This document shows positions 1-62,820 of a stretch of 64,000 nucleotides of DNA, piece after piece. Position numbers and translations under genes: made by a program. Numbering within the stretch: position 1 is the first letter of the stretch; the number at the start of each line of letters is the position of its first letter. Origin of the DNA: Parelaphostrongylus tenuis (Eukaryota; Nematoda; Chromadorea; Rhabditida; Metastrongylidae); assembly GCA_019055375.1 (NCBI GenBank), contig JAHQIW010005468.1:1-64000 (forward strand), written 5' to 3'. The notes under the pieces are model-generated. The model was not told the origin of the DNA. It saw only the letters and a list, made by a program, of their open reading frames with translations, and ran no database searches.

Positions 1-600
1 AGTCTACGAAAAAATTTTTTTCCACCAAGAGAGGCCTCTATAAACTTGCGTATCTTTACAGATGCACGCCATTCGGAAAGGGTCGAACAACAGCAGCAGC
101 CGAAGCAACGCCATCAGCTGACGCTGAAATTTTTAACCGCAGTGGCTTCAGATACCGTAGCGGTTTCGCCTCAGGATCACCATGATTCAGGGAAATTCAA
201 GATAACAGCAAGACAAGACTCGATCACAAGGTTGTCATCACTATTACTATGGCGATCAAGAACACCTCAAAAAATATTCAAAGATCATTGCCGAGGACGA
301 GGACGGGGGTTAGCCCTTTGGAGACGATGAGGGCCTTTTGATACTCACCGCGCGACGTCAAATCTCATTCAGCCACTGAGAAGACGGCGTCGCGTCCCGT
401 GGAAAAGCAGGCACACAGCCAGACATGCAAACGCCGCCACTCTGATTGTCGCGCAAGCGACGGCGCGACGCCGCCTGCCTATCGACGCTGGTCTTCAAGG
501 GGTTAATACGACGAAACAAGACGAATGTAGGAAGCGCTGCGATCTGCCGCAGTAAACTGTGATGGCCGGGCAGTGTGAGGAAAAAAAATTTCTAATTTTA
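1..600. other. Left-edge segment, no supported gene
   Basis: The segment is richer in G+C than the rest of the window and contains CAG-like runs (about 91-106) and palindromic GC-rich stretches (about 360-480). A 94-codon open frame at 46-330 has no recognisable domain and I do not accept it as a gene. The segment could hold an upstream exon or promoter of a neighbouring gene, but nothing in it decides this. Confidence 0.3.
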
Positions 601-2184: not shown

Positions 2185-5100
2185 GCATATGTACACATAA
2201 TCTGACAATGTGTTTTGAGCCCTTCACGAGGTCTGTCATGGCATTTATACATTACAAAGCCCGTGTTTCGGACTTCCAACGTCATCAGTTGCGTAGTGCC
2301 TTTTCTCTCAATCAGTTCCTCGGGGATCTAGCCTTATATAGAGTATTCGGCGACAGCCTTAACACACCCGATATACGGTGAAACAGTTACCGTGGCGTTT
2401 TTCTAGAGTATCGAGTGCGACTGATTGTCACTGTGTAAGTGCCCTTAACACCACATGAAAGGCTCGAAAGACATTGTCAGATTATACTGTTCTGGAGCGA
2501 GGCTCCAAAATAGTCGATTGCAATGTTCCTCACATACATAGGTAAGTGTATTTATATTATTATTATTATATATATATATATATATTATTGAACATGTATA
2601 TGTATACATGTATATATATGTATATGTACATATATGTATACATGTATATTTGATTGCCGGAGAGTGTTAGGGGAAGCAGAGTGGGTGAGGGACAGGTGAT
2701 GGGGGATCGACTTTGCACCGAACATCATTAGCCACTCGGCCATTGGCCCCTCGTATATAGAGCGCATGTGGCGCAGTGGTTAGAGGTGCCCTGCGTCGCA
2801 TACGAGGTCACTGATTCGATCTCGCGCTCATGGCTCACCAAGCCATCCATCCCTCCGTGGTCGGTAAATTGGTACCATACAGGTCCCAGACTTGTCTGGG
2901 AGGATAAGCAGCACTGACTCGGTTCAGCGGTAGGCCACCGCGAGTCATTGTAAAGGCCAGATGTGCATTCAATCACCTCAAACGAAGTAAAAAATTGAAG
3001 TCGAATGCATGGCGCATCCCTCAGGGATTGATCAACGTCGAGAGCTTTATTCTTAGAGCTTTTATACATGTATATATATGCGCATATACATATGTATATA
3101 TATATACATATATATATATTATATCGCTCAATCGCTGAGAGATGGCCTGCATTCGTCATCAATTTTTAACTTCGTTTGAGGTGATTAAGTGCATATCTGG
3201 CCTTTACAATGACTCGCGGTGGCCTAGCGCTGAACCGAGTCAGTGCTGCTTATCTTGCCAGACTAGTCTGGTACCAATTTACCGACCTTAGAGGGACGTG
3301 TGGCTTAGTGAGCCATGAGCGCGAGATTGAACCTCCGGTCTTGTTTGCGGCGCTGAGCACCACTAACCACTGCGCCACGTGCTCTCCTGTACATATATAT
3401 ATATATATATTTATTTATTTATTTATTCATTTGCGTATATGTATATTTCAAAGGCTTAATTAAGCTTTTCACGAGGTTTAGTATTGCAACTTAGTGGCAT
3501 AAACACGTTTCGAAGTTTCAATACGTGATATTTCGCTTGACGAGCAAGCTGGCATCTTCCCCCCTTTATTACTTTTGGTATGGTGGCTTATGATACTGAT
3601 AAAGCGGGCGAAACCGTCGAAACGTGCGTATATCATTGAGGTGTAACTCAGAACCTCGTAAAAGGCTGAGGAAAAAGTCTTTGAAAATATATCACCTGTA
3701 TCACCTGTCGTCCCGTTGATCGTCGAGTGACTCGAGCGGGTACCAGCAACTCTTCCATTTTTCCCTATCGCGTGCAAGAGTAGCCCAGTGGGTCCTCCTT
3801 GCTCTAGGAATTCGCTGAGCATCATATCTTTCTTCCATCGCTTTCGTGAAGAAATCGGACCAACGGGTCAGTGGTCTTCCTTTAGAGCGCTTGACGTCCC
3901 GAGGGAACCAGTCGGTAACGGCTCTCGTCCATCGGTTGTCGTTGAAGCGCATCACGTGTCCGGCCCACCTTATTTTCGATATCCTGGCGTGTAGAACGGC
4001 GTCTCTGATTTTCGATCGTTGACGTAGGTCGGAAGTTCGGATCCTTTGTCTCATTTGCGAAATACGAGATACTCCTAGCATCGACCTTTCGACTGCGCGT
4101 TCGATAACGGCAAGTAATCTTTCATCCTGCTTACGTAGCGACCAGGTTTCTGCTGCATACGTTAGGGCAGGGATAATTGTCGAGTCGAAAAGGTGGGCAC
4201 GGAGTCGGATGTTCTTTGTCCTCTTCACTACATCTTCGATGCTCTTTAACGTTCCCCAAGCCGCTCGTTTCCTCCTGCTCAACTCTGGGGCTAGGTCGTT
4301 CATCATGTTGATTTCACGACCTAGATAGATGTAACTGGAGCATTCGGAAATTGTCGTTCCGTTGAGCGTGAATGGGGCATTAGAAACCCATCCGTTCCTC
4401 ATGAACATTGTTTTCGTTAGATTCAGTTGAAGACCGATCTTTCCACAGGCGTTATCGAAATCAGTCAACATTCGTTCCGCTTGGCTGATGTTTGGTGTTA
4501 TGAGAACGATATCGTCAGCAAAGCGAAGATGGTTTAATTGTCGACCGTCAATTTTCACTCCCATTTCGTCCCATTCTAATGTTCGCATGACGTTTTGTAG
4601 GGTGGCAGTGAATAGTTTTGGCGATATTGTATCGCCTTGTCGAACCCCTCTTCTTACGTCAATGGTGATATTGTTGTAGAATGGAGATATTTCGGTCGTG
4701 AAATCTTTATAAAGCTCACGAAGGATCATTATGTACCGAGTAGGGACGCCCTGGTTATCCAGAGCCTCTATAACCGCTTCTGTTTCCACTGAATCAAAGG
4801 CTTTTTTCAGATCGATGAAAGTGAGACAGAGTGGTTGTTTGTACTCTCGCGAAACTTCAATGAGTCTTGTGATCGTGTGGATGTGGTCCATGGTACTAAA
4901 TCCTTTTCTGAACCCTGCTTGTTCGCATGGCTGTCCTTCGTCCAGTGTTCTGTCAATCCTGTTCAGGATGACTCGAGTAAAGAGTTTATAGACAACGGAC
5001 AGCAAGCAGATTGGGCGATAATTGCCTATGTCGTGAAGGTCTCCCTTTTTGAACAACAATACGGTCTTGCTGGTTTTCCATTTAATAGGGACCTTGCATT

Positions 5101-8100
5101 CTGACAGGTAGCGAGTGAAGAGCCGAGCCAGGGTGTTGATGAGAACTGGCGGCAGGTTCTTCAGGTGTTCTGGTCTAATCCTGTCTGGACCGGGTGTTGT
5201 TCTGTTTTTTCACCGACGATATAGCATGTCGGATTTCGGAAGGAAGGACCGGTGGAACGACATATTCGTCCTCTTTCATTTATATGACGGTAAGAGAACA
5301 TGGCTAGCGAAGAGATCCGAGTAGTACTGGTGGATGATTTTCTCCATAGCCCTTCTGGAAGCTGTAAGTGTCCCGTCAGGGTATCGGAGTGCAATCATCT
5401 TGGTCTTATAGTTGGCGAAGCCTCGCTGGGCTTTGCGAATGCTCTTCCCAGCTTCTGCAGCTTCTGCCATAACTGCTGCTCTTCTCTCTTTAAGGTCTTC
5501 TTTTATCGCTTCTCTGCATCGTTTCGCAAGTTCGGACGTAAGGTTTCGGTTGCCTGCGGCTCGTGCGATTCCACGTTGACGTATCAGCTCGAGTGTCTGC
5601 GGAGACAAGCGTCTCTTCGTGACCTTAGGACTTTCGGCTTTTTTAGCGCCAACGTGAAGATATTAACGAGTCGATCGTATTCTTCGTCGATGTTGTCGAC
5701 AACGGTATCTTCCCAAGAGCCGACTAATGATTTGAATACATCCAAGTTTATGGTAGTTCTGGGACTTCGTTGTTTTGAATTTAGCGGCTTTCTCTCCTCT
5801 CCTCGAAAATCGGAACGTTGCGCGAAGGAGGCGATGGTCTGATCCCGTGTAGAACTTGGGAACAACAGCGACGTCGGTCAGGCAAAACCTTCGATTTACT
5901 ATGATGTGATGAAAATATATATATATATATATTATATATATATATATATATCATATTTGAAGATCCTGCGAGGTTTGAAATCGGTGGAATGAAAAGCAGT
6001 GTATTTAAATAGTTCTATCTGCCTTTATAGTACATTATTTTCCAGTAATATTCCTTGGTCATGAAGGCTCTAGTCAATGAGAGTAAATTCTTCCTTGATT
6101 ATTTTCCCAAGTCCTCAAGGACTTCTTATTCTGTTCCTCCTATAGGTTGTATCATGATGTTAGATTTGTATATCCAAAGATGCTGAGTATATATGCAAAA
6201 TTGCCGACCTCAGACGGGAGTTGAACCCGTGTTTTACCTGTGGGGGCGGCGTGTGTAACTACTACACCACCGAGGCCATCGTTCTGTTATCGAGATTCCT
6301 TCTGTGACATGAGCCATCGTATCTGTCAGGTTTCAACTCGCGCTCTGGGTCTATAGTTTTACGAATCTCTCAGTATTTTGGAATAAAGTTTTCTAAGTAT
6401 TTTTAGTAGATTATCAGTTGAAAGAAATCCTTAGCGTCTTTTTTTGCTTTGTACGAATATTTTCACATAGACGAAGCGGGGAGTCTCATAGAATAATGCT
6501 TTTCTAATGAGAAAATTCATTTTTTTTTCTTTAGGAAAATCGATAGCGCTCTGCGGAAAGATGCTGTGGAACTTGCCAAAGGGGCTGAATGGGGAGGCCA
6601 AGTAAGTTATTGAGTTGACGAGGAATTTCCCCGGATTTTTTCGTTTTTGTTGATTAGTTTTCATACATTTAAGTCTTTGTTTCTGCTAGCGCTCTTAGCA
6701 GCTTCTTGCGATTATTTTCATATATAACACTTGTACATTTGTTTCTAGGTGGAACTGGTCCGAGAGCAAAAGCGATTATTGATGCTAGACGAGTATTGTT
6801 TAGGTTCAGGTGCTGCTTTGGCATGCAGAAATACTTGTGTAGCATCGACGATGATTGTGGACTCGAGACAATTCCATTTTAAAACAAACATCCAGCTATT
6901 TTATATAGAAATGACCGCAGGAAGCTGCTCTAAGCGATAGTAGAAGCAAAAACGTAGATGTGTCAAAAATATCCAATAGAAACGAAAAAATCCGGGAAAT
7001 TCTTCAGCACCCCAATATATGGTTCTTTTATTGTTAATATCTTGGCTGTTATTGAAGCTGTAATAGTTACATTAGAAACGAATTTCAATTGAGTATAGAT
7101 CTTATCGATCGATGATGAGTATCGTTGGGCTGGTACAAAGGATCCGAAGATCGTCATCACTACTAGCCGAGATCCATCAAGCAAGTTGAAAACGTTTGTT
7201 AAGGTGATTCGTATTTCCTAATAATATGTTTTTTTCCAAAGTAATCTCCTTTCTTAAGTGTTATTTCCAACTTCAGGAAATGAATTGGTTTTCCCGAATG
7301 CGCAGAGATTAAACAGAGGACACTACGATGTCAAACAACTTGTTCAAGCTTGTCGAGCTAACGATGTTAGTTGAAACGAGGTTTTCTTTCTGCAGAAAAA
7401 AGCTGTTTCGTTACATTCCCGTCATCTCAAACCATTTTGTAGCCCTTTGAGGAAGGCCTTTTCCGCTATTCTCAGACTCTACGCGCACCGTTTTTCGCTT
7501 TATCCTCAGACTTTCAGTAATCGTTCGAGAAATTAAATCTCATTGATTTCGAGTACTATGCTTATCTCTCAAAGTCTATTTATTGCGCTATCGCGCGAAA
7601 ATCAAGTTGAGTTTTACACTTTGTAGGCAGTTTTCTTGGCTAATACAAGTGGATGTCGTTTACAACAGCCTGAGAATGTGATCTCATTTTCGCTGTCACA
7701 GTGCTTTAAGAGAGATTTTTTCAAAGAAAACTATAGTACTAGAATCGCCGAAATTTAAGCTATCGAATGTTTGCTAAAAGTCTGAAGAAAACGATAAAGG
7801 TTCCCTCCTACAAGGGTTAAAGAATGCTTCCGACTAATGGAATTGTACCGCTCTCTCTTTATCCCCTAGTGACTATGGTCTCGTAATTTCGCTAGGGTTT
7901 TTTTTTTATTCTGAATAAAGTAGACTTTTGAGTTACCTTAAAACCTCATAATTTTCTGAAATCTATCTCCCATGTTCTTTGTGCATGTGGGACTGTTGAG
8001 GGCTGTCATGTATATATCTAACTCAAGTGTAAAACAGTATTATTTTGCTCTCACGGCGCTTTATGAAGAATTTTTTGTAAAGCAAACACATTTTGAGAAT

Positions 8101-12840: not shown

Positions 12841-12917
12841 ACGGCCTCAGGCGGGAGTCGAACCCGCATTTCATCCATGCCGGGGACACGTGCTACTACT
12901 ACCACACCACAGAGGCA
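12841..12917 (-). repeat. tRNA-like SINE head (family 4)
   Basis: The minus strand reads GCCTCTGTGGTGTGGTAGTA ... GCGGGTTCGACTCCCGC-CTGAGGC. The B-box and T-arm are perfect and the acceptor ends pair. It sits next to a hairpin and a hammerhead element. An active tRNA is unlikely because the anticodon arm is poor. Confidence 0.55.
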
Positions 12918-30058: not shown

Positions 30059-33000
30059 ATGGGTCTACTACGTTATGCATTGATTTTCGGTGCTTTTGGT
30101 ATGGTTGCGCACATCATCAATAGTATGCTTTACACCAAATATCCTCTCCATTTCGATGGTGAAGCTGTGGAGGGATTTGACGGTGTTCGCAAGGCTTTTC
30201 AGTTAGTTTGACGATTTATTCCATGACAAAGTTTTTCGTGATTCTTGTGAACTCTACTGGAATATGCTGTACGCACAATGTTTTGAGCGATTGGATTTTT
30301 TTATATCACAAAAGAACTTCTGATATTGGTAAGCTAAGTCGTAAATCCTGTTCAGTCTGCCCTGTTACTTTCATACTGACACACTGAGTATTTAGACAGA
30401 ATTTCTTGAATCGTTGGGAAGCCGAAGGTGCTTCACTGGCTGTTTTTGTGAAAGGGCAAAAAGTGGTTGACATATGGGGCGGATACGCCGACAAACACGC
30501 GGACCGAAAATGGAAGGAGGTGATGGCTTTCGAGTATAGAATATTCGAATATTCGAGAATTACTAACTGAAGTGATAAAGTCGTACCTAATTGGGAGCTG
30601 GTTATTTTCGGGTTTTGTCTATCGCTTCTTTTCTGTTATCCGAGAGCAAATGAATTTTGGACCTCATTTGCTGGACAGAGATTTTTATAGGAGTGTTGGT
30701 AATCATTCGAAAGCTCAAATCTCTGGCTTGAGCCCTACGTGGCCTGATTCAAAAGACTTTTTATAACGCTGTAATATTCAAGATAAAATTATGTCTCATA
30801 CGACCACACATTTTTTTCCTAACCTCGCTTACATTTCGCTGGACAAAACTTCTTCCTTAGATTTCTTGCTCTCTTTCGACAGCGCAAGTTTCAAATAATT
30901 GAAAATGTGTTTGCCTTCAAAAAACCCTCTTGATAGCGATGTATGAGAACGAAAACATTGTGTTTTACACCTTGTCGGACAGAGATCTTCCTTTAGATCA
31001 ATAGTAATCATTCGATAGCGCAAGTTTCAATTATTCCAACGCTGTGTTTGTTCTTTGAAAAGACCGTTTTTTGTAGCAGTATAACAGAGAAAATAAGACT
31101 GCGTTTCATGTATACGGTGCGATCGTCTACCGGCCCACCTACAGGCCGGGGGTACGGGGCGAATGATCGATGCTCTGACGGGTTAGACGCCTGGGGTGAC
31201 TAGTTATCAATTGGGAGTTCTTTTTTTCTCTTTGAAAGAAGCTTCATATAGAACGATTGCCTCGTATACTGCGAGACTTTTCTTTTCGTGCTTCCCTGCG
31301 CTAGAATAATGAGAGCGTGTGGAAAGTGTGAAACATAATTTCATTTTAACTGCTAGAACGTTATAAAAAACTTTATCTAAAACCAGCTATGTATTGCTCT
31401 AGCCAGAGATTTAAGCTCTCGAATGATTATCAACACTCTTGTGAAAGATTTTTGTCCAACGAATGAGGTCAGAATATTGATTTGTCCCCGGATGACTGAA
31501 ATAAACCGTCTATCAAGGACTAATATGCAACTTTTGCGGTCTGTCAGTAAAAGCAGCTTCATGTCCTACGATATGTCAACAGGCCTCTCTTTCTCGTATT
31601 TTCACCTTCAAATATTTACAAATTTTGTATTTTGTAATCCATTATCTGTTAGAGCTTCAGATGACGTATTCGTTTCTGTGCAGAGACTCATTTAACAAGT
31701 CAAGGACGCTGAACAGTGATAGTAACTGTTTTCTTCTCAGGAACACTATTAGCGTAGCATTCTCAACTACGAAGGCAGTTGCAGCTATCTGTATAGCAAT
31801 TCTTGCCGACCGCGGACGTTTGAGTTACGATGACCGAGTTTCAAAGCATTGGCCTGGATTTGCGAAAAACGGCAAGGAAAACATCACTATCGAATGGGTA
31901 ATGTCGCACATGGTAAGTAGCTATTCTATTCGCAAGAAACATTAAAACTCTTGCGATGACGCCTAACTTTCGTTATGCTCTCTGTGACACCCGTGGAAGG
32001 CACATCAGCCACTTTAACAGTTTTTAGTGGTTCCGTCTCTTTCTATTGTGATCCCCCTTCTATAGATTCTTTTCTCTACATTTCAAAGAAATTTCTATGC
32101 CTCTTTCATACTTTGTGGGTTCCATGTAATTCTACATACAAACCCATGTTTTTGTAAATATTAACTTTTGTACGTGAAGGGAAAGTATACACTATGCAAC
32201 CATATCGCCTATCAGCATTTGATACAATTTTATGAATCTATAAGTAAGCTGAAGTTGTGCAAAATATATCCATAATTATCACTTTGGGGTCACCATATCC
32301 ACATTCTCATTCTGGGAACCCAAAAGTCGTCATAGCGATTAAAAGTTAGGAACACTAGAACAATTTATCTCACCTATCAGAATGCAATGTCTCGATGTGA
32401 TTCCTCTTCAAAAAAATTGAAAAATTCTCAGGTGAAACGGTTTGAACACAAAACTCTAGTCAGGTCTTCCCTACTTGGATGCGACGATTACTGAAGATAT
32501 GGCCTTTGATCATAACCTCATGAGAAGGGTTCTCGAAGAGGAGAAACCGAAATTCACACCGGGAGCCAGTAGCAGATACCACTTCCTCACATACGGTTGG
32601 TTGGTGGATCAGATCGTGAGACACACTGATGATAAACGACGTGGAATCGGACAATTCCTTAGAGAAGAAGTCACCGAACCAAACGGTCAGCTTAGGTTTT
32701 CATTTGTCTTTTATTAGCTTAATGTGCTTGATGCTTTCGGCCACAGTCAAAATCGCTGTGCGCAGTCCAATTCACAAGTGGGCGCGCGGTCTCTGCTATT
32801 TAAACAGGTTTTTTTCTGTTTTGGAAATAATTTGAGTTTCCTGCAAAACTTCAAAAATTTATGATCTCTTCTACATACCCGTTTGCCATTGGTTCAAATA
32901 TAGCACTTGCGGGTAAATAAAGTCTCTCTTTTCCAACGAAATTAAAGTTGCTGGAATACTGTCAACGAAATAAGTTGCACAAGGAATATCAGGAGATAAA

Positions 33001-49645: not shown

Positions 49646-51979
49646 TGTCAAAAAGTGTCAGACCTAAAATTTAATTGCAAATGAATAATATGTAGTGTAT
49701 AATTGTGAGTGGCTATTCAAAGTGTGCGGAAAAAAAAGTTGCTCGCACGTCAATCGTCGCTTTTGGTCAAGATATACCAGTTTCGTGGAAGCTTCTAGAA
49801 AAGGACAGCTTACGAGAATGTTTATGTTGTGGTTATCAAATCTCTTGACTAATATTTTTATTTTGCAACGACACTTTAGGTAGTGATTTCACTTAGTTCA
49901 CAAACATATGTCAGTCGTAGTTCAGAATATGATCATTCTTCTCCTCTTTGTTATGTCTAACATTAATACTTATAGTTCTTCTATTATTGTTGTAAATCCG
50001 TAGTAGTTTTTGTGAAAATTCTAAATTACATTGATATTCCATACGATTAAGTCTAAGTTACTTCGACATTTTTCTATAATGGGTCTGTTAAGATATGCTT
50101 TATCTTTTGGAACTTTTGGAATAGCTACTCACATCGTCATCAATATACTCTACACCAAATATCCGCTTCATTTCGAAGGTGAAGCTGTAAAAGGATTCAA
50201 TGGTGTTCGCAATGCTTTTTTCGAATTTTGATTAACACAAAAATTTTGTGCAACAGTGATCATGTTTCTCATTATTGGTGAAACGGTATTCCTTTGAAGG
50301 TGCCCCGCAGACAAACTAAAATCATGCGTAAGTGCGATGATTGTTATGCGACAGCAAAACTTTCGAGTTGATCTACTAATCCTTAGCATTTAGACAGAAT
50401 TTCTTGGATGTCTGGGAAGCCGAAGGTGCTTCATTGGCGGTTTTCGTGAAAGGACGAAAAGTGGTTGACATATGGGGCGGATTAGCCGACAAACATGCGG
50501 ATCGGAAATGGAAGCAGGTGGTGCTCGTCGAGTGTCGATAGTCGAATATTTGAGAATATGGCATTCGATTAGAAAATTCGTGAAGAACTGAGTACTTCAA
50601 ATATTTGCGAATGTTGGAACTGGCTTTTTTTTGGTTCTAACCTGCTAAGACTAATCAAAGAGCTTCTGCATTGAAACGGTTTCGTGTCACTCAACATGTT
50701 GACTAATCATTTTCTTTTTGATATTTTCGCTTCGTAAATAAGCAAATGTAGCACTTCACCTATCTATTCAAGGTCCAGCAATATATCTGCTTTTCTGCGA
50801 AAATTGATATTTTCAGATTTGAAACACTGAACAGTGGTAAGGGCTGCCATGTTCTTAGGACACTCTCAGCATAGTGTTCTCAACTACGAAGGCGGTTGCA
50901 GCTGTTTGTATAGCAATTCTTGCCGACCGAGGTCGATTGAGCTACGATGACGGTATTTCATAGGATTGGCCCGAATTCGCGAAAAACGGCAAGGAAAACA
51001 TTACTAACGAATGGGTGGTGTCGCATATGATGAGTTGCACTTCTAATTACAAGAAACATCAGAATTCTTGCGGTGGCACCTAACTTTTTTCTGCTCTCTG
51101 TGACACCTATTGGGGTCACATCAGCTACTTTAGCACTTTTGAATTGGTTGCACTTCTTTCATTGTGATTTGTGTTCTATAAAATTGCTTGTTTCTGTGTT
51201 TCGGAAGAAAATTCTTTTTTTTGTCTTGTTATGCTCCATGTATTCCCATGCACTCTCTCATGTGATTGGTGCGTAGTAAATCTTCTTTTTTTCCTTACTC
51301 TTTTGCGTGGACGAAAACGCTCGTGCTCTGTGTAGTCGTATTGCTGTCAGCATTTAACGAAGTTATAGGAAAGGTTTAAGATTATTTTGATGAAATGGTG
51401 AAATCAAAAATGCTTCCAGTCAGGTCATCCCTACTTGGATACGACAATCACATCACTGAAGACATGGCTTTTGACCATAACCCCATGAGAAAAACACTTG
51501 AAGAAGAGATGCCAAAATTCACACCTGGAGTCAGTAGCGGATGCCATTTGCTTGCCTATGGATGGTTGGTAGATCGAATCGTGAGACACGCCGGCGATAA
51601 ACGACGTGGCATCGGACAGTTCTTTAGGGAAGAAGTCACCAAATCAACGGTCAGCTGACACATTTTCTTGTACTTCATCGACTTGAGATGCTTGATACGT
51701 TAAAATCAATAAAAACTCTGAGAACGCACCAAAATAAAGATAGAAATAAAGGTATCGGTCTCAATGCCTAAGCTGTAAGCCAACGTCTGACCTTTACCTG
51801 GATGACGTGCGAAACTTCATAGAAATAAATGTGACCGCCACAGGCGCAATTAAATAATCATATGGTTTTTCATTTCGTCACATGGACAGTAATCGACTTT
51901 TAGCTTCGGTTTTGAGCGTATTTTGTGTGATTTGGTTTTTTTAAAGGTCTTCGAACCCTCTCATAGCTTGTATTTAATC

Positions 51980-51991
51980 ACTGTCATTTCC
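51980..51991. repeat. Target-site duplication, left
   Basis: ACTGTCATTTCC, identical to 52554-52565 on the other side of the hammerhead element. Confidence 0.85.
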
Positions 51992-52071
51992 GCTATCGAC
52001 TGCTTTTTTACAGACCCGCTCAAAATGATTTAATCTGATAAGGATATGACTTATTTTGAGCCATAGGTCTA

Positions 52072-52119
52072 GTGCTATATAGGCGCCTATTTCGTCCTAT
52101 TGGGACTCATCAGTAGCAC
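52072..52119 (-). ncRNA. Hammerhead ribozyme, complete (copy 1)
   Basis: Inverse of copies 2 and 3: stem I GTGCTA/TAGCAC, core CTGATGA (52113-52107), stem II GTCC/GGAC, GAAA, and the self-complementary stem III ATAGGCGCCTAT. Confidence 0.9.
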
Positions 52120-52191
52120 CCTCCCTCGGTTCCGTCGATCCCTTGAGGTGAAACAATCCTCCAAAGGAACCGACGCCGACGAGGACGACGG

Positions 52192-52239
52192 GTGCTACTG
52201 ATGAGTCCCAATAGGACGAAATAGGCGCCTATATAGCAC
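52192..52239 (+). ncRNA. Hammerhead ribozyme, complete (copy 2)
   Basis: Stem I pairs GTGCTA (52192-52197) with TAGCAC (52234-52239). The core is CTGATGA (52198-52204), stem II GTCC/GGAC closes a 5-nt loop (52205-52217), GAAA is at 52218-52221, and stem III is the palindrome ATAGGCGCCTAT (52221-52232). Cleavage is predicted after A52233 (triplet ATA). Core and stem II are almost the same as those of the well-known schistosome satellite hammerhead. Confidence 0.92.
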
Positions 52240-52473
52240 TAGACCTATGGCTCAAAATAAGTCATATCCTTATCAGATTAAATCATTTTGAGCGGGTCTG
52301 TAAAAAAGCAGTCGATAGCAGAAGTATAGTTCATTTTAAAAGCCGTAAGCTCGACTGCCGGTCACCACAAGGTCAGGTAATAACATCATCCTACTTTGGG
52401 TGCTTAATTTTACTCGGCGTCGGTTCCTTTGGAGGATTGTTTCACCTCAAGGGATCGACGGAACCGAGGGAGG

Positions 52474-52521
52474 GTGCTACTGATGAGTCCCAATAGGACG
52501 AAATAGGCGCCTATATAGCAC
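52474..52521 (+). ncRNA. Hammerhead ribozyme, complete (copy 3)
   Basis: Identical to copy 2 in all ribozyme positions, offset by 282 bp; predicted cleavage after 52515. It has the longer upstream body, ending 'gaaccgagggagg'. Confidence 0.92.
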
Positions 52522-52553
52522 TAGACCTATGGCTCAAAATAAGTCATATCCTT

Positions 52554-52565
52554 ACTGTCATTTCC
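52554..52565. repeat. Target-site duplication, right
   Basis: ACTGTCATTTCC, identical to 51980-51991. Confidence 0.85.
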
Positions 52566-58214: not shown

Positions 58215-59345
58215 CACCCATTTTCAGTCTCTTCTAAAAGGCACATTTTTGCTCTTTTCTGACCTTTGATAGTCATTCTATAGCTTAGATCTCGAGAATT
58301 TGAACGATTTATTCTATTTTTTGAATGGCTTTTCAATGCGCTTTAATTGTGAAAATAGAAATTTCATTTCATAGTCAAGCATTTTTCGCTGGTAAAGCTT
58401 TTCTTTCACACGAACTGTCTTTTTCTTTCTTCAAAACTTGCACGAGATTGGTACTTCTTTTTCCTCCAAATTTGATGACCAGCGTTTCGGCGGCAATGCC
58501 TTCGTCAGAGCCTAGACATATATATCATACCATATCTGATTACTGGGTTAATATTTCGCATGCATCAAAAATCCATTAGGAAAGAATTTAACAGTCTTGT
58601 CATTCTGAAAGAGTCTACCTTATTTAGAGTAATATGAGAGCGGTCACAGGTTTTGTGTGACACAATTTGAAAGTGAACCACACTCACATCAGAAACATGA
58701 ATCTGAGATATGGTGCCGTATTACTAGTTATATTCAGGCATTCTCCCATCCCTATTCATTTCTGGTCTTTTGCGGCTTATCCAGAAACTTTCAAGGTTTT
58801 CCGCTCCGATGTTTTCTTGACTCCTGCCCCAGGACCTTGACTACCACATAAAGTCTGTATCGTCATGTTTCTCTATTCTGTCGCCCAAGAAGGCTTTATT
58901 ATCTCGCTGTTGGCTTTCCCATCTAAGTGTTCTTTGATGCAATTCCAAAGTGGCCTTTCTGTATCACCAATGTATTCTTCACCGCATGTTGTGAATAAGA
59001 TCAGGTATATTGTAGCCGAACTCATACAATCTCCTTCTCTACCATTAGGGCATACCTTGCAATTTTCAATCTTACACAGACGGTCGGACAAGCGATTCCG
59101 AACCAATTGGCGACGTAAGTTATTAGTAGGAATTTCTATGATTCCTGCGAAGTTTTCCCACTGTTCTCAAACACCTTCAATATCTAAGCCTATTTCATTT
59201 GTTATAAGAGGTGGTTTCACAAATATCTTTCTTTCTAGGTTTGGAACAACGCCGTTTTCGTTATTAATGTTATGGGGCCTATCTCTCCTTATTAGCCTAA
59301 CTTCCATGGCCGCTCTTTCGTAGCCATTTGAGATGGCTATCCTTC
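58215..59345 (-). mobile_element. Penelope-like element 3' part, left inverted arm
   Basis: Reading leftward, frames give AAMEVRLIRRDRPHNINNEN and FVKPPLITNEIGLDIEGV (linker), LVRNRLSDRLCKIENCKVCP (CxxC zinc-finger-like), then TIYLILFTTCGEEYIGDTER, the GIY-YIG endonuclease motif typical of Penelope-like elements, and KEHLDGK. Further downstream are a hammerhead-like motif (CTGACGA ... GCCGCC-GAAACGC, 58508-58484) and terminal sequence of the abundant-repeat type. The reverse transcriptase is absent. It faces the right arm head to head. Confidence 0.75.
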
Positions 59346-60200
59346 GTTTCGCTTGCACGACCGTCTGTGTAAGGCTGGCAGTTGTAAAGTATGCCCTGAT
59401 GGTAGAGAAGGAGATTGCGTGAGGTCGGGTACAATATACCTGATCTCATGCACAACATGCGGTGAAGAGTACATTGGCAAAACGGGGAGACCACTTTGAG
59501 TCCGCATCAAAGAACACTTAGATGGGAAACCCAACAGCGAAACAAATAAGCCTTTGGAGGCCACGTAGTGAAAATCCTGAGGCAAGAATCAAGAACATTA
59601 GCGCGAAGAACCATTGAGGCTTTTTGGATAAACCGCAAACTACCGGAAATGAATAGGACGGAGAATGCCTTAACATAATATTTGATACATCACCTTATCT
59701 CTGATTCATCTTCTAATCTAAGTGTGGTTTATTTTTCAGATTTTTCAAATTGTGTCACACAAAACCTGTGACCGCTCTCATATGATCTAAATGAGGTGGG
59801 GTTTTTTAAATGATTAGACTATTAAGTTTTTTTTCTATTGGAATTTTGTTGCATGCAGAATATTAACCGAGTGATCAGATATGGTATGATATATATGTCT
59901 AGGGTGACGAAGGCATTTTCGCCGAAACGCTAGCCATCAAATTTTGGAGGGAAAAGAAATACCAACCTCGTACAAGTTTTAAAGAAGGAACAAGACAGTT
60001 CATGTGGAAGGAAAGCTTTGCCCTGCGAAAAATGCTTGAGTATGAAATAAATTTTTATTTTCACTGTTAAAGCGCATTGGAAAAGCCATTCAAGAAACTA
60101 AAATAATTTATTCAAATTTCTGAGATCTAGCTATGAAATGACTATCAAAAAGATCAGAAAAGAGCGAAAAATGCCCTTTTAAAAGAGACTGTGTTTTCAA
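59335..60200 (+). mobile_element. Penelope-like element 3' part, right inverted arm
   Basis: The plus strand decodes (with frameshifts) as RLCKAGSCKVCPDGREGDCV, GTIYLISCTTCGEEYIGKTG, RPL-stop-VRIKEHLDGK, closely matching the left arm. At 59904-59928 it carries GTGACGA ... GCC-GAAAC, the counterpart of the left hammerhead-like motif. The outer ends are inverted ('ttttaaaagagactg' at 60178 against 'cagtctcttctaaaag' at 58226). Head-to-head truncated copies are typical of Penelope-like insertions. Confidence 0.75.
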
Positions 60201-62769: not shown

Positions 62770-62820
62770 ATAGTGCTGGACAGGCCCCTGCTTCGTCCTT
62801 TCAGACTCCTCAGTGCTCAA
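62770..62820 (-). ncRNA. Hammerhead remnant, 52-kb type
   Basis: The minus strand has CTGAGGA (62813-62807), stem II GTCT-GAAA-GGAC, GAAG (expected GAAA) and a stem III CAGGGGCCTG, then AGCAC as in stem I of the 52-kb copies. The stem I 5' strand no longer pairs. A relict of the same subfamily. Confidence 0.55.

What the first reader, a model, noticed from the sequence alone, without database searches (positions are those of the whole stretch)
51980..52565. Recently mobile hammerhead element: three complete ribozymes and a 12-bp target-site duplication
The 562-bp insert holds three near-identical full hammerheads (one inverted, two direct at exactly 282 bp) and sits between perfect ACTGTCATTTCC repeats. 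It encodes no protein and is missing from the paralogous LACT intron. Self-cleavage at 52233 and 52515 would release a 282-nt monomer that could be circularised. Together these features describe a non-autonomous retroelement that moves through a ribozyme-processed RNA. I am not aware of one described from a strongylid nematode, but I could not search.
Basis: partly seen in the sequence, partly recalled or inferred. Interest (0 to 1): 0.95.

Follow-up and report, generated by a model that had tools for sequence, protein, structure and literature searches.

The report
Retrozyme carrying a Penelope insertion scar
A short RNA element without a recognisable gene, with three hammerhead motifs predicted to cut its own RNA, sits between matching 12-base repeats in what is apparently a roundworm genome, and its mirror-image copies with two fixed ends match those of Penelope retroelements in the same genome, whose enzymes therefore likely paste it into new sites.

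Summary
In detail: a 562-bp insert (51992-52553) between perfect 12-bp repeats carries three identical type I hammerheads, one inverted and two direct, 282 bp apart. It is a metazoan-type retrozyme in an apparently strongylid genome, where the 48-nt hammerhead occurs 1,990 times (up to 3 mismatches). The inverted copy is the main clue. Of 40 loci examined, 37 have 10-15-bp target-site duplications (mode 12). All 30 two-armed loci point outward, with outer ends at two RNA positions about 50 nt apart (A about 39, B about 90); 24 of 27 independent two-armed loci with a duplication use one of each. A second sample of 20 loci agrees: 13 with duplications, 10 of 11 A/B. Penelope-like elements of the same genome show the same plan: outward arms, 11-14-bp duplications in 10 of 14 pairs, two 3' ends about 46 nt apart, and hammerhead-like motifs. 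A LINE control shows no such pairs (0 among 150 hits, against 16). Best reading: Penelope machinery likely inserts the retrozyme by reverse transcription primed from both sides of a staggered break. Self-cleavage, circular RNA and the enzyme itself are inferred, not shown.

The parts
51980..51991 (.). Left target-site duplication ACTGTCATTTCC
   Evidence: Exact repeat of 52554-52565
51992..52179 (-). Inverted arm: antisense copy of unit positions 181..282 and 1..86; its outer end (51992) is site B, unit 86
   Evidence: Exact match to the unit multimer; B ends in other loci
52072..52119 (-). Hammerhead ribozyme motif, type I (inverted arm)
   Evidence: Rfam RF00163 29.5 bits, below the cut-off of 34
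52180..52189 (.). 10-nt junction filler CGAGGACGAC where the two arms meet
   Evidence: In neither arm
52190..52553 (+). Direct arm, 364 nt: unit positions 239..282, 1..282, 1..38 (1.29 units); its outer end (52553) is site A, unit 38
   Evidence: Exact match to the unit multimer; A ends in other loci
52192..52239 (+). Hammerhead ribozyme motif, type I, first direct copy; predicted cleavage after 52233
   Evidence: Rfam RF00163 29.5 bits, below the cut-off of 34
52234..52515 (+). Predicted 282-nt monomer (unit 1-282), 44% G+C
   Evidence: Between the two predicted cleavage sites
52240..52258 (+). 5' strand of the predicted stem that holds site A in its loop (unit 7-25)
   Evidence: Folds; pairs across loci
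52284..52300 (+). 3' strand of that stem (unit 51-67), between sites A and B
   Evidence: Folds; pairs across loci
52474..52521 (+). Hammerhead ribozyme motif, type I, second direct copy; predicted cleavage after 52515
   Evidence: Rfam RF00163 29.5 bits, below the cut-off of 34
52554..52565 (.). Right target-site duplication ACTGTCATTTCC
58693..59346 (-). Decayed Penelope-like element, left arm (C-terminal part with endonuclease region); a neighbour, not part of the insert
   Evidence: tblastn of the L088 ORF, 47% identity, E 9e-47; no Pfam match for its 97-aa piece
59350..59713 (+). Decayed Penelope-like element, right arm, head to head with the left arm; a neighbour, not part of the insert
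   Evidence: tblastn pieces at 59350-59556, 59565-59672 and 59660-59713

Best explanation
The insert is a hammerhead element without a recognisable gene (a retrozyme) that was likely placed here by the enzymes of a Penelope-like element of the same genome, by reverse transcription predicted to be primed from both ends of a staggered target break. Shown by sequence: a 12-bp duplication, two arms pointing outward, and outer ends at two unit positions (A about 39, B about 90), usually one of each, across retrozyme loci; a matching plan in Penelope-like elements of this genome. Inferred: transcripts are cut by the hammerheads into 282-nt RNA, which host ligase closes into circles. A GIY-YIG/RT protein of the Penelope kind makes a break with 12-nt 3' overhangs. 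One 3' end starts copying the RNA at site A, in the loop of a stem, and the other at site B, downstream of that stem. Each copies for a variable distance, often more than once round, and the two cDNAs are joined in the middle.
For: TSDs: 37 of 40 loci, 10-15 bp, 21 of them 12 bp; 0 of 200 mismatched locus pairs gave a perfect one of 11 or more. Orientation: 30 of 30 two-armed loci among those 40 are outward; 21 of 21 mixed-strand groups among the first 100 exact hammerheads listed (three groups there, C145, C320 and C403, are also among the 40); 13 of 13 two-armed loci in the first-20 sample. Ends: 25 of 28 two-armed loci with TSD are A/B, 3 A/A, 0 B/B (the same when ends are sought over the whole unit); with L030/L033 as one event 24 of 27, P about 2e-5 if the two ends were chosen independently. 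The first-20 sample, not overlapping the 40, gives 13 of 20 with TSD and 10 of 11 A/B. Priming: target ends share 1.37 nt with the RNA on average against 0.51 for reshuffled TSDs, 0 of 2,000 reshuffles reaching it, 65 ends. Penelope-like elements: 16 outward and 0 inward pairs within 5 kb among 150 endonuclease hits, against 0 pairs among 150 hits for a LINE of the same genome, counted by eye in the listings. TSDs of 11-14 bp in 10 of 14 pairs examined; flanks of mismatched pairs shared 11 or more in 0 of 56. Exactly one B end in 12 of 12 pairs with both ends mapped, the other at A in 7. One copy (L088) with an open 825-aa RT plus GIY-YIG frame has a 12-bp TSD, one inverted and two direct pseudo-LTRs, and three hammerhead-like motifs. 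In print, an Anolis Penelope protein cuts and extends both strands and starts at two internal RNA sites whose spacing is the 'tail' (PMC11167929, main text read).
Against: No RNA or protein evidence is available here. Retrozyme and Penelope-like element share no clear sequence at sites A and B. The likeness of stem geometry is weak on the Penelope side: the matching stem appeared in 1 of 3 Penelope stretches folded, and another partner was chosen in L062. Five of 12 mapped Penelope pairs have their second end upstream of A. Four of 14 Penelope pairs lack a clear 11-14-bp TSD; one of these has a 19-bp repeat beside duplicated flanks. In a few pairs up to about 10 nt lie between TSD and mapped B end. 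In vitro, the Anolis enzyme showed no difference in start site between strands, and hammerhead mutants did not affect insertion (PMC11167929), so the ribozyme may matter for template supply rather than insertion. Long arms could also come from linear multimers read out of existing arrays, so a circular template is not proved. Same-locus arms were more alike than arms of different loci in 24 of 29 comparisons, not in all. In the first-20 sample 7 of 20 loci had no clear TSD.
Confidence: 0.82

Rival explanations
1. LINE-type target-primed insertion with ordinary twin priming: a LINE of the genome, for example the RTE-like one in the window, copied the RNA and the inverted arm is the usual 5' inversion.
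For: TSDs, microhomology and inverted 5' segments also occur in LINE twin priming (established knowledge); LINE copies with 99% protein identity are abundant here.
Against: Both outer ends are fixed, at two sites, which LINE twin priming does not predict; TSD length is tight; the 3' end has no poly(A) or simple repeat; LINE hits show 0 close opposed pairs among 150.
Confidence: 0.08
2. Autonomous viroid-like RNA that replicates by RNA-to-RNA copying and only occasionally enters the genome.
For: Hammerhead, small unit and a strongly self-paired RNA (circular fold -83.6 kcal/mol, z about -3.9); RNA-to-RNA copying of retrozymes is raised as possible in PMC7761336 (section 9 read).
Against: Rfam finds a hammerhead on one polarity of the unit only, at E up to 5; 1,990 genomic motif matches, many in copies with TSDs, are enough as sources.
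Confidence: 0.06
3. Foldback DNA transposon with long inverted repeats and a 12-bp target duplication.
For: A large perfect inverted repeat and a TSD of near-constant length.
Against: The two outer ends are different unit positions (A and B), arm lengths vary from 39 to 3,875 nt over 25 A/B loci, the inner junction moves, and single-armed copies exist. Transposon termini would be inverted copies of each other.
Confidence: 0.02
4. Satellite DNA spread by recombination or extrachromosomal circular DNA.
For: Arrays of up to 13.7 units exist.
Against: 37 of 40 loci have TSDs, different between loci save one duplicated pair, and ends are fixed.
Confidence: 0.02

Closest known systems
Metazoan non-LTR retrozymes (Cervera and de la Pena 2020, PMC7229834; part 2 of the text, sections 14 and 17, and passages read)
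   Same: Type I hammerhead, 282-bp unit in the 170-400-nt range, tandem copies, below 50% G+C, no LTR, no recognisable protein, TSD longer than 4 bp, self-paired RNA.
   Different: Apparently nematode host ('nematod' occurs 0 times in that paper, though its list of phyla ends 'among others'); outward two-armed copies, two fixed start sites and one-of-each pairing are not described in the parts read. That paper calls Penelope-like elements a strong candidate mobiliser because both have type I hammerheads, occur in tandem and co-exist; the 2020 review says the repeats show no conserved motif that would reveal the partner (PMC7761336, section 9).
EN-containing Penelope-like elements (PMC11167929 main text; PMC3846280 passages)
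   Same: Outward inverted arm, optional 'tail' on one of the two inverted ends, short TSD, tandem direct copies, hammerhead. Adineta Pen2a has an inverted pLTR, a 31-bp tail and a 9-bp TSD.
   Different: The retrozyme has no RT/endonuclease ORF, has a hammerhead with a helix III, and shares no clear sequence with the local Penelope elements.
Plant LTR retrozymes (PMC4918200; search listing with the start of the abstract only)
   Same: Non-autonomous hammerhead retroelements thought to move through circular RNA.
   Different: Type III hammerheads in LTRs with 4-bp TSDs and Gypsy partners (as summarised in PMC7229834).
LINE 5' inversions by twin priming (established knowledge)
   Same: Inverted 5' segment between TSDs.
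   Different: Only one fixed end there; two fixed ends here.

Membership tests
Metazoan non-LTR retrozyme | Type I hammerhead with intact core | tested here: met
   RF00163 29.5 bits, below the 34-bit cut-off; catalytic fold within 0.1 kcal/mol of the minimum; 0.7% divergence in the hammerhead against 2.5% elsewhere, 152-159 unit copies per hammerhead position
Metazoan non-LTR retrozyme | Repeat unit of 150-450 bp, in dimers to long arrays, below 50% G+C | tested here: met
   282 bp, 44% G+C; up to 13.7 units in one arm
Metazoan non-LTR retrozyme | No coding capacity and no LTR/PBS/PPT | tested here: inconclusive
   No Pfam family at cut-off for the longest open frame; direct copies are one 282-bp period, not LTRs around a body; PBS and PPT were not tested by a tool
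Metazoan non-LTR retrozyme | Target-site duplication longer than 4 bp | tested here: met
   12 bp here; 10-16 bp in 50 of 60 loci (37 of 40, 13 of 20)
Metazoan non-LTR retrozyme | Self-cleavage and circular RNA in vivo | not testable with these tools
   No RNA data or bench
Penelope-like element (as a member) | ORF with RT and GIY-YIG endonuclease | tested here: not met
   The insert has none; so it is not a Penelope-like element, only likely moved by one
Penelope-like element (as insertion mechanism) | Outward inverted arm, two 3' ends separated by a tail, short TSD | tested here: met
   Retrozymes; local Penelope elements: (with exceptions listed under evidence against)
LINE-dependent SINE | 3' end like that of a LINE, poly(A) or simple repeat; single 3' end | tested here: not met
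   Two fixed ends, no poly(A); similarity to LINE 3' ends themselves was not tested
TIR DNA transposon | Both termini are inverted copies of each other | tested here: not met
   Termini are unit 86 and unit 38
Viroid-like replicon | Replication through both RNA polarities | not testable with these tools
   No RNA data

The most novel reading that the evidence does not exclude
Retrozymes are the SINE-like parasites of Penelope-like elements: the circular RNA imitates the Penelope 'tail', with one start site in the loop of a stem and a second start site about 50 nt downstream, so that a Penelope protein dimer primes both strands of a 12-nt staggered break on the same small circle, one strand at each site, and rolls round it in both arms. 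If so, two-sided priming is the general way Penelope elements integrate, and the long-sought partner of animal retrozymes is identified.
Probability: 0.45. Interest if true: 0.86.

Novelty: new variant of a known kind. Interest (0 to 1): 0.78.

Why it matters
Which enzyme moves animal retrozymes is an open question; Penelope-like elements were named a strong candidate from shared hammerheads, tandem copies and co-existence (PMC7229834, section 17), with no motif pointing to the partner (PMC7761336, section 9). Here insertion scars point to it: retrozymes and Penelope elements of one genome share duplication size, outward arms and paired ends. It gives a ready test (starts at unit 36-49 and 83-97), a genome with 1,990 hammerhead matches to test it in, and a constraint on how Penelope elements integrate: the A/B pairing favours two coordinated primings over self-priming on an antisense template, the reading preferred in PMC3846280 (passages read).

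Tried and rejected
Empty site in the paralogous LACT intron: not alignable at the insertion point. A MIR4239 hit (29.8 bits against a cut-off of 100) spans the head-to-head junction and is read as the inverted repeat, not a microRNA. A window search for further copies of the unit found only a decayed hammerhead at 62771-62814; its genome search did not complete. A fuzzy hammerhead regex timed out and was replaced by unit profiles. Equal total length (about 560 bp) of many early loci was judged a bias of the query; the first-20 sample shows varied lengths. Limits of the counts: the 39 loci behind one search are the best matches to a query that already held both arms, so the share of two-armed loci there (30 of 40) is biased; the sample needs one exact hammerhead and so favours young copies. 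sought ends only at unit 30-159; one search repeated it over the whole unit with the same result. L030 and L033 are one event. L016 (TSD in a T-run; an internal deletion; its left end looks like unit 102 by eye) and L031 were kept as A/A; L046's duplication is 10 bp with one mismatch. L041 was dropped from the arm comparison for too little overlap. The 10 Penelope pairs were picked because they were pairs; L058, L060, L088 and the C2112 pair were looked at as well, giving 14. Of the 16 outward pairs the C1187 and C3579 pairs and the second C3034 pair were not examined for TSDs; the two C3034 pairs look like mirror copies of one. Penelope pairs without a clear 11-14-bp TSD: C212, C4088, C2112, C3034; C212 and C4088 are also the two without both ends mapped. 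In one search the 40 long matches other than the query itself end at 337-349 of 391, but they come from the 40 best of 1,715 candidates. Penelope hammerheads were recognised by pattern and by likeness to the published minimal kind, not scored with Rfam. On rechecking I lowered the novel case from 0.5 to 0.45, because the tail-like stem appeared in only 1 of 3 Penelope folds. Whether nematodes were listed in the 2014 paper on Penelope hammerheads could not be checked (not held).

Full report
What is there. Between perfect 12-bp repeats (51980-51991 and 52554-52565) lies a 562-bp insert. It has an inverted arm (51992-52179, exact antisense copy of unit 181-282 and 1-86), 10 nt of filler, and a direct arm (52190-52553, exact copy of unit 239-282, 1-282 and 1-38). 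The unit is the 282 nt between the two predicted hammerhead cuts, 52234-52515. Three identical 48-nt hammerheads match Rfam RF00163 at 29.5 bits, below its 34-bit cut-off. The core pattern was found in 0 of 100 shuffles. The catalytic fold lies within 0.1 kcal/mol of the minimum with or without flanks, and stem III with its loop is a perfect 12-nt palindrome, so a dimeric ribozyme is possible. As a circle the unit folds to -83.6 kcal/mol, about 3.9 standard deviations below 200 shuffles.

The genome. The window lies in a 481.5-Mb assembly of 5,105 contigs. The 48-nt hammerhead with up to 3 mismatches occurs 1,990 times, 959 forward and 1,031 reverse; the reversed control pattern occurs 0 times. 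In a search with Rfam RF00163, 20 of the 31 places listed (74 of 119,811 candidates scored) reach the cut-off, while 0 of 14 control genomes respond. None of those 20 is in the window; they were not read and may be other families.

The scar. I mapped 39 further loci and the window. Target-site duplications of 10 bp or more were found in 37 of 40 (10 bp once, 11 three times, 12 in 21, 13 in 8, 14 and 15 twice each; 33 perfect and 4 with one mismatch), and not in L017, L035 and L038; 0 of 200 mismatched pairs of loci gave a perfect one of 11 or more. Thirty of the 40 have two arms, and in all 30 the antisense arm is left and the sense arm right, 3' ends outward. In the first 100 exact matches listed there are 55 groups, 21 of mixed strand, and 21 of 21 are outward; three of the groups (C145, C320, C403) are also among the 40.

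Two fixed ends. With duplications removed, outer ends fall into two clusters: A (unit 30-55, mostly 35-46) and B (unit 83-108, mostly 85-93). Of 28 two-armed loci with duplication 25 are A/B, 3 A/A and 0 B/B. That script sought ends at unit 30-159 only; over the whole unit the result is the same. The 9 single-armed loci with duplication end at A in 7 and at B in 2. L030 and L033 share duplication and flanks and count as one event, leaving 24 of 27 (P about 2e-5 for independent choice). To lessen selection by the query I took the first 20 loci in contig order, none among the 40: 13 of 20 have duplications of 12-16 bp, 13 of 13 two-armed loci are outward, and of 11 two-armed loci with duplication 10 are A/B and 1 (L103) has both ends on the A side. 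Target ends share on average 1.37 nt with the RNA beyond the end, against 0.51 after reshuffling (0 of 2,000; 65 ends), as expected if the target's 3' ends prime. Duplications of the two-armed loci are 77% A+T, the window 61%.

Template. Arms run from 39 to 3,875 nt; median 382 for A arms and 221 for B arms over 25 A/B loci. L021 holds 13.7 and 4.3 units; each arm is variable at 4 of 282 positions and the two arms have the same majority sequence over 282 positions. Same-locus arms were more alike than the mean of other loci in 24 of 29 comparisons, and not exceeded by any other locus in 12. This fits one RNA species copied from both sides, often more than once round; a linear multimer is not excluded. 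The hammerhead is better kept than the rest of the unit, 0.7% divergence against 2.5%.

The Penelope elements. A fragment at 58876-59166 (-) in the window gave 150 scored hits in the genome, with 16 outward pairs within 5 kb and no inward one (counted by eye). The window's own relic is head to head: 58693-59346 (-) and 59350-59713 (+). Of the 20 loci fetched, 15 carry a hammerhead-like core downstream of the endonuclease on the same strand and 2 more (L053, L054) only in an opposed arm; none was found in L051, L052 and L055. The type with GAAACGTC in place of a helix III resembles the minimal kind described for Penelope elements (PMC7761336, passages). Copies of one family end at two places about 46 nt apart, and 40 of 40 long matches other than the query end at 337-349 of a 391-nt query. 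Fourteen pairs were looked at: 10 have duplications of 11-14 bp, one (C3034) a 19-bp repeat beside duplicated flanks, and 3 none; 12 have both ends mapped, all 12 with exactly one B end, 7 with the other at A and 5 further upstream. A control with mismatched flanks gave 0 of 56 matches of 11 or more, against 8 of 8 for the true pairs with both ends mapped. Between duplication and B end a few pairs carry up to about 10 extra nt. One copy (L088) has a 12-bp duplication, one inverted and two direct pseudo-LTRs, three hammerhead-like motifs and an open 825-aa frame with RVT_1 (5e-10) and GIY-YIG (6e-7). It is the window insert's plan with a gene inside.

Control. The same kind of search with the last 97 residues of the RTE-like LINE at 3704-5209 gave 150 hits and no opposed pair within 5 kb; the whole ORF gave 85 hits and none; both counted by eye.

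RNA geometry. In the retrozyme, unit 7-25 pairs with 51-67 and holds site A in its loop; B lies about 20 nt after the stem. The pairs are almost invariant across loci, which says little either way; one (25/52) changes from T-A to C-G in three arms. In the Penelope element AACCTCG can pair with CGAGGTT, with A between and B about 20 nt after, but that pairing appeared in 1 of 3 Penelope stretches folded. The likeness is an idea to test.

Literature. Animal retrozymes and the Penelope proposal: PMC7229834 (part 2, sections 14 and 17, passages) and PMC7761336 (passages, section 9). Two internal start sites, both strands extended, 'tail' between them: PMC11167929 (main text). Inverted pseudo-LTRs, a 31-bp tail on one of them, duplications of 8-10 bp, head-to-head copies: PMC3846280 (passages). 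Searches for a nematode retrozyme or a retrozyme footprint listed none by title or start of abstract; subscription papers are mostly not held and the 2014 Penelope-hammerhead paper was not available.

Verdict. A real, apparently young retrozyme insertion of a known kind, in a host group not named in the parts read, with an insertion footprint that ties it to Penelope-like machinery. Shown: anatomy, copy counts, duplications, fixed paired ends, shared footprint, LINE control. Inferred: cleavage, circle, enzyme, two-sided priming.

Noticed in passing
window 62771-62814 (-): Decayed hammerhead-like motif, 78% identical over 45 nt to the retrozyme hammerhead; possibly a relic of an older retrozyme family.
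   Followed up: partly
G000 C2799:362696, C4524:21339, C821:12500, C2944:151014(-)/151217(+) and others: Twenty places reach the Rfam RF00163 cut-off (best 45.8 bits), none of them in the window; the C2944 pair is outward, which suggests a second retrozyme family with the same scar.
   Followed up: partly
window 3704-5209 (-): RTE-like LINE reverse transcriptase ORF with 84 other hits at 99% protein identity, so apparently a young or active family.
   Followed up: partly
L053:359 (-) and L054:2917 (+): A hammerhead-like motif with the same helix I (GTGCTA/TAGCAC) but another helix II, near Penelope copies.
   Followed up: no
L017:3576-3847: A divergent (68%) near-single unit of the retrozyme running from just after site A round to site A again.
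   Followed up: partly
window 31505-31942, 32460-32714 and 51380-51655 (+): Beta-lactamase-domain (LACT-like) frames of two paralogous genes, the last one below the Pfam cut-off (22 bits against 27); the retrozyme's duplication starts 325 bp downstream of that last frame.
   Followed up: partly
window 6206-6276 (-) and 12843-12916 (-): Two Rfam tRNA matches above cut-off.
   Followed up: no
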